Shown here in pieces: positions 1-46,194 of a stretch of DNA of 52,639 nt. The notes beneath the pieces are model-generated. The model was not told where the DNA came from. It was given only the letters and a program-made list of their open reading frames with translations, and searched no databases. Numbering within the stretch: position 1 is the stretch's first letter; each line of letters begins with the position of its first letter. A program made the translations under genes and the position numbers. The DNA is from Candidatus Gastranaerophilales bacterium (GTDB lineage Bacteria > Cyanobacteriota > Vampirovibrionia > Gastranaerophilales > Gastranaerophilaceae), in NCBI GenBank assembly GCA_944323705.1, contig CALUTM010000006.1, forward strand, positions 1-52,639, given 5' to 3'.

Positions 1-79
1 GGGGTAAATAACGGGGGGGTAAATAACGGGGGGGGTAAATAACGGGGGGGGGTAAATAAAGAGGGTAAATAAATGGGGA
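1..79. repeat. G-rich tandem repeat (GGGGTAAAT family)
   Basis: Five G-tracts are separated by TAAATAAC or TAAATAAA spacers. The complete tracts grow from 7 to 8 to 9 G, followed by a shorter GGG and a GGGG. It lies about 160 bases downstream of the end of the minus-strand gene at 242-544. Related GGGGTAAA blocks recur at 8335-8382, 26824-26878 and 48701-48737. Four or more G-runs with 8-base loops could form a G-quadruplex. The window begins inside the repeat, so its full length is unknown. Confidence 0.85.
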
Positions 80-241
80 AAATACAGATGATAAATTAAT
101 TGTTTTGATAAATTTCCTGTATTGTTCATTCTAAAAAACATAAATTGCTCGGATTACTTGGTGCAACTTATGTTTTTTGTTTATGAAATCACAAATAGTA
201 TAAATAAGATACTGAATATTTTTTTGCGGCTTTTCCGGGTT

Positions 242-1776: not shown

Positions 1777-4251
1777 CTATTCTCTGAAAGATAATTCAGG
1801 TATAGATTTTTTAAGCACTGCTCTGAGATTTGCCATTTGGGTTTCGATATCCTCATCGGTCATCGTATTATTTGCATCTTGCATTTTTACTCTAAATGCC
1901 AGAGACTTGAAACCTTCCTGAACATGTTCTCCTTGATATACGTCAAATACGCTGCATCCGGTAAATACTTTATTATCAATTCCTTTTTTGATAATTTTGT
2001 TTAATTCATCCCAGGTTGTATCGGCAGGCACTATAACCGCCAAATCTCTTTGGACTTCAGGATACTGCGGCAGCTTCCTGAATCTCGGGACTCCCGGATT
2101 TACTGCATTTATGAATAAGTCTAAATCAAGCTTAAATAAATATGCATTCTGATTTAGTTTCATTTTATTTTTTAATTCCGGGTGTATTTCTCCGTAATAT
2201 CCGACGATTTCGGGCTGTTTGCCCAAAAGTGTTAAAACTGCGGATTTGTAAGGGTGCATGCAAGTATGTGTTTCTGCAAGCTTTGAGTCTGCAAGAAGTT
2301 CAAACTTGATTCTTCGCGTAAGTCCGAAAGCATCCAAAATTTTATCGACAATGCCTTTGACGGTATAAAAATCAACATCTCCGGTTTTTTGCCAGAGGGA
2401 GTTTTGAATATTTCCCGTGATTACACCCGCAAGTATTTGAGTTTCTTTTACTCCGGTATTTTTTTCATCGGCTTTGGCTACTCTTACATAGCTTCTACCT
2501 ATTTCATAAGCCCAGAAATCTTTTTGACCGTTGTCATAATTATATTTTAAGCACTGGAGAATACTTGCCATAAGAGTTTGTCTCAGCATTGTATAATCCT
2601 CAGAGGCAGGATTCTGTACAAAGACGGCTTTTTCCTTGTTATATGAAACGTTAAATTGTTTTAGTAAAGGTTCACCGATAAGTGAAGAGGTTTGAATTTC
2701 GTCAAGCCCTTCTCCTGACATAATATTTCTTACTTTTGCGATTACTTTTTCGGCGTTGGAAATTTCTGCCGTTCCCGGTCTTGCAGGGAGTGTCGGAGCT
2801 ATTTGGTCATAGCCGTTTATTCTTGCAATTTCTTCAATTAAGTCGCACTCTCCTTCCACATCTCCCGCACGGAAAGACGGAACTTTTATTTTGCAGGCAA
2901 TTTCATTTTTGCCCAGAATTTCAAATCCTAATTTTTCAAGGATAGAGAGACATTTTTGCGGTTCTATTTCGCAACCCAAAATTCTTTTTATCTGTGGGTA
3001 TCTTAGAGTTATTTCAATCGGTTCAAGTTTATTAACTCCGGTTTCCGCAATTCCTTCAAAAGTTGCGTCCGCATATTTTTCCAAAAGTTCTACGGCTCTA
3101 AGCAGTCCCGGTCTTACGGCTTCTATATCAACACCACGTTCAAATCTTGCACAGGCTTCGGAGCGATAACCGACGCTTCTTGAACTTCTTCTGTTTGCTT
3201 TTGGTGTGAAGTATGCGGCTTCAAGGGCAATATTTTTTGTGTTTTCGTCAATTTCGGAGTTGGCACCGCCGAATACGCCGCCAATACATACGGGTTCATT
3301 TTCGGAGGCTATTACTACCGTGTCATGGGTGAGTTGCCTTTCCGTTTCATCCAAGGTTACAAGGGTTTCGCCCTCTTGAGCCCGTCTTACGCATAAATAA
3401 CCGTTAAGCTTATCCGCGTCAAACGCATGAAGCGGTGTTCCGTATTCCAACAAAACGTAATTCGTAATATCAACAATATTATTTATTGCTCTTATACCTG
3501 ATGAAGCCAATCTTTTTTGCATCCAATCAGGCGATGGTTTAATTACGGCATTTTTAATAACACCGATAGAGTAATACTTACAAACATCACTGTCTTTTAT
3601 TTCGACTTTAAAATCGGCGGGGAATGTTTCTCTTGCAGCATATTCAAATACAAGCGGTCTGTTGAACAGTGCGGACAATTCTCTTGCAATACCTACTGCA
3701 GACATTTGGTCGCCTCTGTTTGCTGTCGGAGCCGTGTGAAGAATATAATCTTTTTCAAATCCGAGAACATTTTCAACGTCCAGTCCTAAGCCGACGTTTG
3801 GGAAAATTCTGTTAAGGATTAATATTCCGTCTTCTTCCTGATAATTTCTGTCCGCAACTCCTAATTCGTCATCGGAGCAAAGCATTCCTTGAGATTCCAC
3901 GCCTCTTATTACTGCAGGAGTTAATTCAAACTGTTCTCCCGTTTTTCTGTCCAAAACCTTACTACCTACGGAAGCATAAGGGATTATTTGACCTTCTTTA
4001 ATATTTTGGGCACCGCATACAACAGTTTTTAATTCAGAACCCGTATTTACGGTTACAAGATGCAGATGGTCCGAATTCGGATGGTTTTCTATTTTTTCTA
4101 TCTTAGCGGTTATTATATTGGTAAATTTAGGTCTGACTTCTTCAACCTCCTCAACTTCCAATCCGCTCATAGTAAGCTCGTGTGCAATTTGAGCCACATC
4201 TAAATCTCTTAAATCAACTAATTCATTTAACCAGTTTAATGAAATCTGCAT
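1777..4251 (-). CDS. pheT: Phenylalanine-tRNA ligase beta subunit
   Basis: At 824 residues this is the full usual length of bacterial PheT. It forms the alpha2-beta2 enzyme that charges tRNA-Phe in the cytoplasm. The order is an N-terminal EMAP/tRNA-binding domain (about 40-150), the B3/4 editing domain (about 210-400, with NIVDITNYVL), the B5 domain (about 405-480), the inactive catalytic-like core, and the C-terminal anticodon-binding FDX-ACB domain (about 730-824, with KLPQYPEVQRDLAVIV). The partner pheS is not adjacent, so the subunits are encoded apart. A TATAAT box lies at 4279-4284 and an AGGGAAG ribosome site precedes the ATG. Confidence 0.97.
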   Translation of the reverse strand: MQISLNWLNELVDLRDLDVAQIAHELTMSGLEVEEVEEVRPKFTNIITAKIEKIENHPNSDHLHLVTVNTGSELKTVVCGAQNIKEGQIIPYASVGSKVLDRKTGEQFELTPAVIRGVESQGMLCSDDELGVADRNYQEEDGILILNRIFPNVGLGLDVENVLGFEKDYILHTAPTANRGDQMSAVGIARELSALFNRPLVFEYAARETFPADFKVEIKDSDVCKYYSIGVIKNAVIKPSPDWMQKRLASSGIRAINNIVDITNYVLLEYGTPLHAFDADKLNGYLCVRRAQEGETLVTLDETERQLTHDTVVIASENEPVCIGGVFGGANSEIDENTKNIALEAAYFTPKANRRSSRSVGYRSEACARFERGVDIEAVRPGLLRAVELLEKYADATFEGIAETGVNKLEPIEITLRYPQIKRILGCEIEPQKCLSILEKLGFEILGKNEIACKIKVPSFRAGDVEGECDLIEEIARINGYDQIAPTLPARPGTAEISNAEKVIAKVRNIMSGEGLDEIQTSSLIGEPLLKQFNVSYNKEKAVFVQNPASEDYTMLRQTLMASILQCLKYNYDNGQKDFWAYEIGRSYVRVAKADEKNTGVKETQILAGVITGNIQNSLWQKTGDVDFYTVKGIVDKILDAFGLTRRIKFELLADSKLAETHTCMHPYKSAVLTLLGKQPEIVGYYGEIHPELKNKMKLNQNAYLFKLDLDLFINAVNPGVPRFRKLPQYPEVQRDLAVIVPADTTWDELNKIIKKGIDNKVFTGCSVFDVYQGEHVQEGFKSLAFRVKMQDANNTMTDEDIETQMANLRAVLKKSIPELSFRE

Positions 4252-43931: not shown

Positions 43932-45950
43932 CTAAATAAGTTGTAAAGCAAGAGAAGGCGTTTGATTTGCGGTTGCAAGGAGCGTCGCCGCAGCTTGTTG
44001 CAGTATTTGATTTCTGATATATTGTGAACTTTCTTCGGCAATGTCGGCATCTCGGATGGTAGAACGGGATGATACCAGATTTTCGTATTTAATTCCTATT
44101 TCTTCCAAAGAACTTGTAAGCCTGTTTTCGATTGCTCCGAGGTCAGTCTGCCGGGCATTTACTTCTTTTAAAAATTGATCTATTTTTTCCAGCGTCCCCT
44201 CTGCTTCAAGCCCGTTAACCGCAATTGTGCGGAGTCCGCCCAGTGCAAAGAACGAATTAAACGTTATCTTCGAAGATTCATTGGAATCAATTCCGACTTG
44301 CAAGCTTGTATCCGCAAGTTCATATATATCTTTTACATTATTAACGGTCGATGACGATATACCCGTAAGTCCTAAATTTTGGTTAAGCTGTCCGTTGTAT
44401 GAACTTTCTTCAACTGTAGTATTTACTCCTGAATAACCTACGAAAATTCCGGTTCTGGAGTTACCGTTGATTTGCCCTAAAACTAAACAATTTGAAATTG
44501 TAGCACGGATTCCTTGTCCGGCAATTCCTCCAACATTCATGCCGCTACCGCTTATATCACCGATAGTGTAACTGTTTTGGATATTAACAGTACTCCCTGA
44601 CCCGGTAACACCAACAAGTCCGCCAACAAGGTTAATACCATTTACATTTCCGGTTGTATAACAATTCTGGATTACGGTTCCATTTGCTGAAGAATTACCC
44701 ACTAGGCCGCCTGTGTCACCGGAAGATTTTACATTGCCTGTAGTAAAACAATTACTTATGACCGCTCCTGTAGTTTCTTGTTTGCCTAATAATCCCCCTG
44801 TAGCTATAACAGAACTCTCATCCCAACATACAACATCTCCGGTTGCGTAGCAATTAGTCACTTCTTTTGCCTTTGATCTTCCTGCCAGTCCTCCGACAAC
44901 CCAAGTCTTGCTTACAACATCTCCGGTTGCATAACAATTCACAATTTTACCTACATTCGCTGCACCCAGAAGTCCGCCCCCGCCGTTAGCTAAATCCATA
45001 TCCACATCAGCATAACAGTTTTCTACTACACTTGTGAGTGTGTTCATTCCTCCTAAACCTACCAGACCGCCGGAATTTGAATGAGCTGTTATATTTCCTT
45101 CCACTCCGACATTTTTTATTACCGCATCTTCTATATATCCGAAAAGACCCTGGCAATGGTTTGTAGGTCTGTCAATGTACAAGTTTGTTATTTTATATCC
45201 ATTACCGTCAAAAGTTCCTTCAAATGGATTGCTGTATCCGTTATTTCCGCCTATCGGTTTCCACCCTCCGTTTTCCGTATATGCACTAAGGTCAATGTCA
45301 TTGGTCAGAACAAATTCGCTGCCCGCTTCTACAAGTCCCGCATTTTGCATGGTTGCAAGTTTTGCCAACTCTTCTGCCGTGGAAATTGAATAACTCCCTC
45401 TTGCAAGCGTTTGTGTTTCATCGACACTCGCAAGTGCAGTCATAGATGATGTGTCACGCCTTTCTACTTCTTCTATAAAACCCGACGGTCCGGCTTTTAA
45501 ATCCGTACCTATTTCTCCCGAGTCGGCTGCATTTTCTCCAAAAATATCAATGCCGTTGTATGTCGTTGAATTTTTTATTCTGTAAATTTCATTAATTATA
45601 GATGCCGCTTCCGAATTAATGGCTTGAATAGAGGTTTTGCCATAGGTACCGTTTGCCGCTTGTTCCGCAAGAGAACGTAGCCTTGAACCCAAATCCGACA
45701 TTAATGCAAGGTTTGAAGAAGCAGTCTGAACAAAGTCAATACCTGCACTGGCATTATCTTCCGCAATCATATAGGCACTTATTTTTGTACTCATATTAGT
45801 GCTTATTGAAAAATTGGCAGCATTATCTTTCGCCCCGTTGATTTTGAAACCTGTAGTCATCCTCTCTATGGCTTGGTTTAGGGCATTTGTAGATTTATTT
45901 AAACTATTTTGTACGGTCAGTGAAGAAATGTTTGTATTTATATTAAGCAC
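43932..45950 (-). CDS. Flagellin with inserted GLUG beta-helix domain
   Basis: 672 residues. The N-terminal D0/D1 part (1-165, from LNINTNISSLTVQNSLNKS) and the C-terminal D1/D0 part (about 580-672, ending in QILQQAAATLLATANQ) are normal flagellin. Between them lies a domain of about 370 residues with seven GLUG motifs (GGLVG or similar at 294, 325, 353, 385, 414, 443 and 474), expected to form a right-handed beta-helix on the filament surface. Seven repeats carry N-C-Y-like triplets, six of them with Cys, although flagellins normally lack Cys. R90, L94, Q97 and E114 match the TLR5-contact residues of Salmonella FliC. It starts with GTG behind GAGG. Confidence 0.93.
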   Translation of the reverse strand: MLNINTNISSLTVQNSLNKSTNALNQAIERMTTGFKINGAKDNAANFSISTNMSTKISAYMIAEDNASAGIDFVQTASSNLALMSDLGSRLRSLAEQAANGTYGKTSIQAINSEAASIINEIYRIKNSTTYNGIDIFGENAADSGEIGTDLKAGPSGFIEEVERRDTSSMTALASVDETQTLARGSYSISTAEELAKLATMQNAGLVEAGSEFVLTNDIDLSAYTENGGWKPIGGNNGYSNPFEGTFDGNGYKITNLYIDRPTNHCQGLFGYIEDAVIKNVGVEGNITAHSNSGGLVGLGGMNTLTSVVENCYADVDMDLANGGGGLLGAANVGKIVNCYATGDVVSKTWVVGGLAGRSKAKEVTNCYATGDVVCWDESSVIATGGLLGKQETTGAVISNCFTTGNVKSSGDTGGLVGNSSANGTVIQNCYTTGNVNGINLVGGLVGVTGSGSTVNIQNSYTIGDISGSGMNVGGIAGQGIRATISNCLVLGQINGNSRTGIFVGYSGVNTTVEESSYNGQLNQNLGLTGISSSTVNNVKDIYELADTSLQVGIDSNESSKITFNSFFALGGLRTIAVNGLEAEGTLEKIDQFLKEVNARQTDLGAIENRLTSSLEEIGIKYENLVSSRSTIRDADIAEESSQYIRNQILQQAAATLLATANQTPSLALQLI

Positions 45951-46194
45951 GATACACCTCGTCCGTTAGCCATTGTCTTAGAGTTTGTGTATGGCGGGGA
46001 GCATTAATCCATACCCCCTTGAAACCTCTGCATTATCCGATAAGGCGGCTTCCATATATAACTAACAACATATCCATATCTATTTTATAGATACCACATA
46101 TAGAGCATTTATAACATATATTCTAAAAAATTTAACATTTCTTAATAAAACTAAGGACCTTCCAAAATATATTAAAAAGAGTTATAATAAACTC
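45951..46194. promoter_or_regulatory. Intergenic control region of flagellin and wHTH gene
   Basis: This 244-base region separates two divergent genes. On the flagellin side, the segment 45980-46029 can fold: AGAG-TTT pairs with AAACTCT around an inner GTATGG/CCATAC stem, and GGGG and CCCC are left free to pair. On the other side TATAAT at 46183-46188 serves the wHTH gene. No convincing sigma-28 promoter (TAAAGTTT, GCCGATAA) is seen. Confidence 0.55.
45980..46029 (-). ncRNA. Structured 5' leader of flagellin mRNA
   Basis: A nested stem of seven and six base pairs (AGAG-TTT with AAACTCT, GTATGG with CCATAC) lies 30-80 bases before the flagellin start. GGGG in the internal bulge could pair with CCCC in the loop, or these runs could form a competing hairpin. 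I do not recognise a known riboswitch. Confidence 0.4.

What the first reader, a model, noticed from the sequence alone, without database searches (positions are those of the whole stretch)
43932..45950. Flagellin carrying a GLUG beta-helix domain in its surface-exposed region
Normal flagellin ends (residues 1-165 and about 580-672) enclose about 370 residues with seven GGLVG-type motifs spaced 28-32 residues apart. GLUG repeats are known from surface adhesins and IgA-peptidase-like proteins. If assembled, the filament would display thousands of beta-helices, making the flagellum a possible adhesive or glycan-binding surface. Flagellins with an inserted protease (flagellinolysin) are known, but I know of no described GLUG version.
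Basis: partly seen in the sequence, partly recalled or inferred. Interest (0 to 1): 0.85.

Follow-up and report, generated by a model that had tools for sequence, protein, structure and literature searches.

The report
Flagellins carrying a GLUG beta-helix
A gut bacterium related to cyanobacteria makes a flagellum building block with a long beta-helix inserted in it, as does much of its family, and its flagellar cap protein carries similar domains, so its flagellum may work as a sticky surface as well as a propeller.

Summary
The gene lies on the minus strand (45950..43932, GTG start, 672 aa). It has intact flagellin ends around a roughly 360-residue GLUG region. AlphaFold2 folds that region as a confident beta-helix; its closest solved structures are the N-terminal beta-helix of M26 IgA1 proteases and 3n6z. 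It is not a chimera: the same genome has two more GLUG flagellins, and fusion matches occur in at least 41 of 383 genomes of the order (Gastranaerophilales, gut "Melainabacteria"). None was found outside the order in the samples searched.

New points. (1) The insert sits before the D1 beta-hairpin, not at the usual D2/D3 site. (2) None of 25 members has HExxH, but 7 of 17 match Pfam Peptidase_M26_N, so the 17 "Peptidase_M26" flagellins reported in 2017 may be of this kind and not proteases. (3) The same genome has a 4,171-aa FliD (cap) with GLUG-like blocks. (4) Poly-G runs precede 14 of 32 GLUG flagellin genes and 0 of 26 plain ones, suggesting phase variation; the window gene has only five Gs.

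Best reading: a display flagellin for adhesion or recognition. Structure and distribution are well supported; filament assembly and ligand are inferred. It is a new variant of a known kind.

The parts
43932..45950 (-). GLUG flagellin gene, 672 aa, GTG start at 45950, stop at 43934..43932
45955..45960 (-). ribosome-binding-site-like GAGGTG, 4 nt before the GTG start
   Evidence: read directly from sequence
45534..45941 (-). Flagellin_N (PF00669), aa 4-139: D0 and ND1 helices (model H7-99, H105-128)
44304..45533 (-). inserted region, aa 140-549, between the ND1 'YNGI..F' segment and the D1 hairpin 'LQVGI'
   Evidence: placement against FliC
44391..45473 (-). predicted beta-helix, aa about 160-520, block pLDDT mostly 81-97; N-terminal cap aa about 185-275
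44517..45071 (-). seven GLUG core motifs GG[LIV][VIAL]G, first to last (aa 294-478)
44256..44303 (-). D1 beta-hairpin, aa 550-565 (LQVGI...), kept after the insert
43935..44192 (-). Flagellin_C (PF00700), aa 587-672: CD1 and CD0 helices
46014..46018 (-). run of five G in the leader, 63 nt before the start; other GLUG flagellin genes have runs of 6-13 G near this place. Short here, so weak

Best explanation
This is a true flagellin paralogue specialised for display. Its D0/D1 ends are those of an exportable, polymerising flagellin. A GLUG beta-helix is inserted through two flexible linkers into a D1 loop, just before the D1 beta-hairpin. The protein should be exported through the flagellar channel, join the filament together with the shorter plain flagellins of the same genome, and fold its beta-helix outside, so that many copies line the shaft. 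Giant FliD caps of the same lineage carry similar GLUG blocks at the tip. The repeated, fast-diverging beta-helix most likely acts as a multivalent binding surface for mucus, glycans, food fibre or other cells in the gut; it is not a protease. In many relatives, though not clearly for this gene, a poly-G run in the leader probably switches the gene on and off. SHOWN: sequence architecture, predicted fold, homology to solved GLUG folds, distribution, absence of HExxH, association of G runs with GLUG flagellin genes. INFERRED: export and assembly, copy number, binding function, phase variation.
For: Intact Flagellin_N and Flagellin_C in the window protein and in all 17 aligned homologues. AF2: beta-helix at 160-520, flagellin helices at 7-128 and 586-663; a paralogue with 48% identity folds the same way. 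Structural matches: IgA1 protease beta-helix 7uvk Z 28.4, 3n6z Z 22.6, FliC 9iwq Z 19.9 over 180 residues at rmsd 1.6; paralogue Z 26.9, 25.6 and 19.1 (1io1). Sequence profile hits 3n6z over positions 183-407, E 9e-29. Three GLUG flagellins and five plain flagellins in one genome, plus FlgL, FlgK, FliD and FliS. Fusion matches in at least 41 of 383 genomes of the order. Ends 59-62% identical on average but the insert 34-43%. GLUG-like domains also in a giant FliD. No HExxH in 25 members. Poly-G leaders 14/32 against 0/26. Flagellin and FliD have been reported as adhesins in other gut and mucosal bacteria (PMC4009794).
Against: There is no expression, proteomic or microscopy evidence, and the relatives seen are metagenome assemblies. 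The insert site differs from the D2/D3 site and might hinder packing in the filament; this was not modelled. The gene is not next to other flagellar genes, and no sigma-28 promoter was recognised. No ligand-binding site was identified; a beta-helix could be a passive spacer or antigenic coat. The window gene itself has only a five-G run.
Confidence: 0.7

Rival explanations
1. Antigenic or phage-evasion coat: the beta-helix has no specific ligand; it covers D1 and varies so that phages, IgA or TLR5 do not recognise the filament.
For: The insert diverges fast (34-43% against 59-62% in the ends), repeat number varies (inserts of 309-508 aa), and GLUG genes seem to be phase variable. Antigenic and phage-driven variation is a known role of flagellin variable regions (PMC7018530).
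Against: The fold and the GLUG core are kept across genera, and similar domains sit in the FliD cap, which a mere coat would not need.
Confidence: 0.2
2. A flagellin-like protein that is exported but stays a minor part (for example near the hook or tip) or is shed, and is not a bulk filament subunit.
For: GLUG flagellins form an old paralogous class with longer branches than plain flagellins; large inserts at this D1 site could disturb packing; plain flagellins can make the filament.
Against: D0/D1 ends keep the conserved residues and helices; many genomes carry several such genes.
Confidence: 0.15
3. A proteolytic flagellin: an M26 (IgA1 protease) flagellin comparable to flagellinolysin.
For: 7 of 17 homologues match Pfam Peptidase_M26_N; earlier work lists Peptidase_M26 in 17 flagellins (PMC5595980).
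Against: That match is to the non-catalytic beta-helix part. No member has HExxH, no M26 catalytic family was hit, and the NCBIfam flagellinolysin model scores 20.8 bits against a cut-off of 205.
Confidence: 0.02
4. Assembly chimera of a flagellin gene and a GLUG adhesin.
For: Gene from a fragmented assembly (87 contigs).
Against: Open frame without stops; two more GLUG flagellins on other contigs of the genome; fusion matches in at least 41 separate genomes.
Confidence: 0.01

Closest known systems
Flagellinolysin (FliA(H) of Clostridium haemolyticum; NF033876; PMC5595980)
   Same: A flagellin with a foreign folded domain between its N- and C-terminal helical regions, shown to be part of assembled filaments there.
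   Different: The inserted domain is a non-catalytic GLUG beta-helix, not an HExxH metallopeptidase; the lineage is different.
Flagellins annotated with 'Peptidase_M26' (17 sequences, Table 1 of PMC5595980)
   Same: Probably the same kind of insert, since Peptidase_M26_N matches 7 of our 17 GLUG flagellins. Inferred; their accessions were not available here.
   Different: Described there as putative enzymes; here the match is to the structural beta-helix and the catalytic motif is absent.
N-terminal beta-helix of M26 IgA1 proteases (7uvk, 6xjb; PMC7695701) and 3n6z of Bacteroides ovatus
   Same: Same fold and, for 3n6z, detectable sequence homology.
   Different: In the IgA1 protease the beta-helix gates a protease and its NTD binds the IgA1 Fab; here it is inserted in flagellin without a protease.
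Salmonella FliC and other flagellins with D2/D3 outer domains
   Same: D0/D1 core.
   Different: In FliC the variable domains follow the D1 beta-hairpin; here the insert precedes it (about FliC 138-144) and little follows before the C-terminal helix.

Membership tests
Bacterial flagellin | Flagellin_N and Flagellin_C helical regions above the curated cut-offs | tested here: met
   95.8 bits against 26.6 and 70.4 against 23
Bacterial flagellin | D0/D1 fold like solved flagellins | tested here: met
   9iwq Z 19.9, 180 residues, rmsd 1.6; paralogue 1io1 Z 19.1
Bacterial flagellin | not the hook-associated protein FlgL | tested here: met
   NCBIfam ranks flagellin models far above FlgL (8e-52 against 3e-20, none over its curated cut-off); a separate FlgL sits next to FlgK
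Bacterial flagellin | assembles into a filament | not testable with these tools
   needs polymerisation, EM or proteomics
GLUG beta-helix (PF07581) | repeated GLUG motif above cut-off | tested here: met
   38.1 bits against 20.5, six stretches
GLUG beta-helix (PF07581) | beta-helix fold related to solved GLUG proteins | tested here: met
M26 IgA1 metalloprotease | HExxH catalytic motif | tested here: not met
   absent in all 25 GLUG flagellins
Flagellinolysin (NF033876) | model score over cut-off and HExxH | tested here: not met
   20.8 bits against 205; no HExxH
Phase-variable (contingency) gene | long homopolymer run in the leader | tested here: inconclusive
   G runs of 6 or more in 14/32 GLUG and 0/26 plain genes, so met for the class; the window gene has only five G
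Phase-variable (contingency) gene | run length varies within one population and changes expression | not testable with these tools
   only between-copy variation seen (G13 and G10 with near-identical flanks in one genome); reads and expression data needed

The most novel reading that the evidence does not exclude
Probability: 0.4. Interest if true: 0.92.

Novelty: new variant of a known kind. Interest (0 to 1): 0.75.

Why it matters
Flagellins with inserted domains are known, but a beta-helix inserted at a different D1 site, found across at least five genera of a gut lineage and matched by giant FliD caps, suggests an organelle built for contact as much as for swimming. It also offers a correction: the 'M26 peptidase' flagellins in the literature may not be proteases. 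The insert site and the poly-G switch can both be tested directly.

Tried and rejected
Assembly chimera: excluded by paralogues and relatives. Protease: no HExxH and no catalytic family. Structured RNA or riboswitch in the leader: no relevant Rfam match and no pair with changes on both sides. Sigma-28 promoter: no convincing match in 25 leaders. A 'TGTGGMAT...TATAA' element occurs before 7 of 32 GLUG and 2 of 26 plain genes, too weak for a claim of common regulation. Searching 28 GLUG-bearing genomes from many phyla gave full-span matches only in two Gastranaerophilales-type genomes. Full-text search for 'flagellin' with 'GLUG' found no paper, but the library holds open-licence papers only.

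Full report
WHAT IS THERE. The gene runs on the minus strand from a GTG at 45950 to a stop at 43932. Pfam gives Flagellin_N 4-139, six significant Glug stretches and Flagellin_C 587-672.

FOLD. AlphaFold2 on a 17-sequence alignment gave mean pLDDT 80 and pTM 0.61. Residues 160-520 are regular strands with block pLDDT mostly 81-97; flagellin helices are at 7-99, 105-128 and 586-663. Linkers near 139-149 and 520-545 are less sure, so the angle between D1 and beta-helix is not known. The closest solved structures are the beta-helix of M26 IgA1 proteases (7uvk Z 28.4, rmsd 3.0, 276 residues) and 3n6z (Z 22.6); FliC aligns over D1 (9iwq Z 19.9, rmsd 1.6, 180 residues). The paralogue on contig 31 (48% identity) gives the same picture. 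A sequence profile alone also reaches 3n6z at E 9e-29. These Z-scores come from a re-ranking of Foldseek hits.

INSERT SITE. In 29 of 32 GLUG flagellins the hairpin motif LQVG lies 119-130 residues from the C-terminus, after the insert; in the other three the motif was not recognised. In most plain flagellins it follows closely after ND1, and the variable region comes later (LQVG 123-224 residues from the end). The HMMER alignment places the insert at about FliC 138-144. This is a different site from D2/D3. Whether the site is exposed in the filament was not modelled.

DISTRIBUTION. The host is a Gastranaerophilales ('Melainabacteria') gut bacterium, judged from named relatives. Its genome has nine Flagellin_N genes: three with GLUG inserts, five plain, one FlgL. 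Only two of the three GLUG inserts pass the Pfam Glug cut-off. With a profile across the junction (A5), matches spanning flagellin and GLUG parts occur in at least 41 of 383 genomes of the order: at least 28 of 49 in the genus and 13 in four other genera of the family (counted by hand from the listed rows). One match in another family of the order (G038, 602 aa) also spans the junction; its ends were not read. No spanning match appeared elsewhere in a 386-genome sample of the phylum or in 28 GLUG-bearing genomes from many phyla, apart from two Gastranaerophilales-type genomes. Of 80 loci from a scan of 84,980 species, nine were flagellin fusions: eight titled Melainabacteria, Gastranaerophilales or cyanobacterium, and one an unnamed yak-colon bacterium. 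Those scans were pattern-limited, so absence elsewhere is not proved.

EVOLUTION. A tree of the D0/D1 ends needs four label changes for GLUG (shuffled mean 20), so this is an old class and not a recent insertion, though inner branches are weak. Ends average 59-62% pairwise identity and the insert 34-43%. Other long flagellins in the genus carry other repeat domains: 1,796 aa (L044), RTX-like GGxGND repeats in 1,374 aa (L046), and mixed repeats plus GLUG in 1,237 aa (L043).

GIANT FliD. The same genome has, besides an ordinary FliD of 578 aa, an ORF of 4,171 aa with FliD_N at 10-111 and FliD_C at 3929-4163. Its middle holds many short repeats that look like Flagellin_IN (by eye, not by Pfam) and three GLUG-like blocks. 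The blocks rest on the A5 profile (E down to 1.7e-26) and visible motifs; Pfam Glug itself was not reported there. The relative L217 has FliD_N plus 21 Glug stretches (E 1.3e-101), cut by a contig end. In the genus 62 of 65 genomes have FliD_C and 45 of 65 have it in an ORF of 1,000 aa or more, up to 6,148 (counted by hand; ORFs not individually read).

LEADER. Runs of 6 or more G on the sense strand occur within 400 bp of 14 of 32 GLUG genes and none of 26 plain ones (Fisher 8e-5, treating related genes as independent). A conserved leader element ending in the run occurs 17 times in 7 of 65 genus genomes and twice in the own genome, both before GLUG flagellins. Two copies in one genome share near-identical flanks but have 13 and 10 G. 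In 8 of 8 genes with a run of six or more within 130 nt of the start, at least one reading frame other than the flagellin's own is open from the run to the start codon, and the flagellin's own frame is closed (shuffled mean 3.0, p 0.0005, post hoc). That fits a switch in which run length decides whether a leader ORF runs into the flagellin start. The window gene has only five G, so this part concerns its relatives.

PRIOR ART. PMC5595980 found 61 domains in flagellin variable regions and lists Peptidase_M26 in 17. Seven of 17 of our GLUG flagellins match Peptidase_M26_N, which covers the beta-helix and not the catalytic part; none has HExxH. I infer that at least some of the 17 are GLUG flagellins. 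In pneumococcal IgA1 protease the corresponding beta-helix moves as a gate and the NTD contacts the IgA1 Fab (PMC7695701). That is a lead for IgA binding, not evidence of it. Flagellated Melainabacteria are described in PMC3787301.

VERDICT. A real, conserved, structurally convincing display flagellin; function inferred. New variant of a known kind.

Noticed in passing
L210:6465-18977 (G000 contig 16), minus strand: Giant FliD (flagellar cap) of 4,171 aa with FliD_N and FliD_C ends, many repeats and GLUG-like blocks; 45 of 65 genus genomes have a FliD_C ORF of 1,000 aa or more.
   Followed up: partly
L128-L146 (leaders in G000, G007, G012, G074, G080, G083, G087): Conserved leader element ending in a G run of variable length (6-13), mostly upstream of flagellin genes; no Rfam match, no covariation.
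   Followed up: partly
L046:1308-5432, minus strand: Flagellin of 1,374 aa whose insert consists of RTX-like GGxGND repeats.
   Followed up: no
L044:2469-7859, plus strand: Flagellin of 1,796 aa with about a dozen repeats of one module; insert at the same D1 site.
   Followed up: no
window 1-80: Contig end made of short tandem units 'GGGGTAAATAAC' with growing G runs.
   Followed up: no
G000, whole genome: Roughly 38 separate poly-G runs of 8 or more (70 overlapping matches), many near contig ends; possible further phase-variable genes.
   Followed up: no
G226 contig 5, 24620-43411: ORF of 11,061 aa with many GLUG N-cap repeats; its C-terminal end looks like a FliD-type coiled coil by eye.
   Followed up: no
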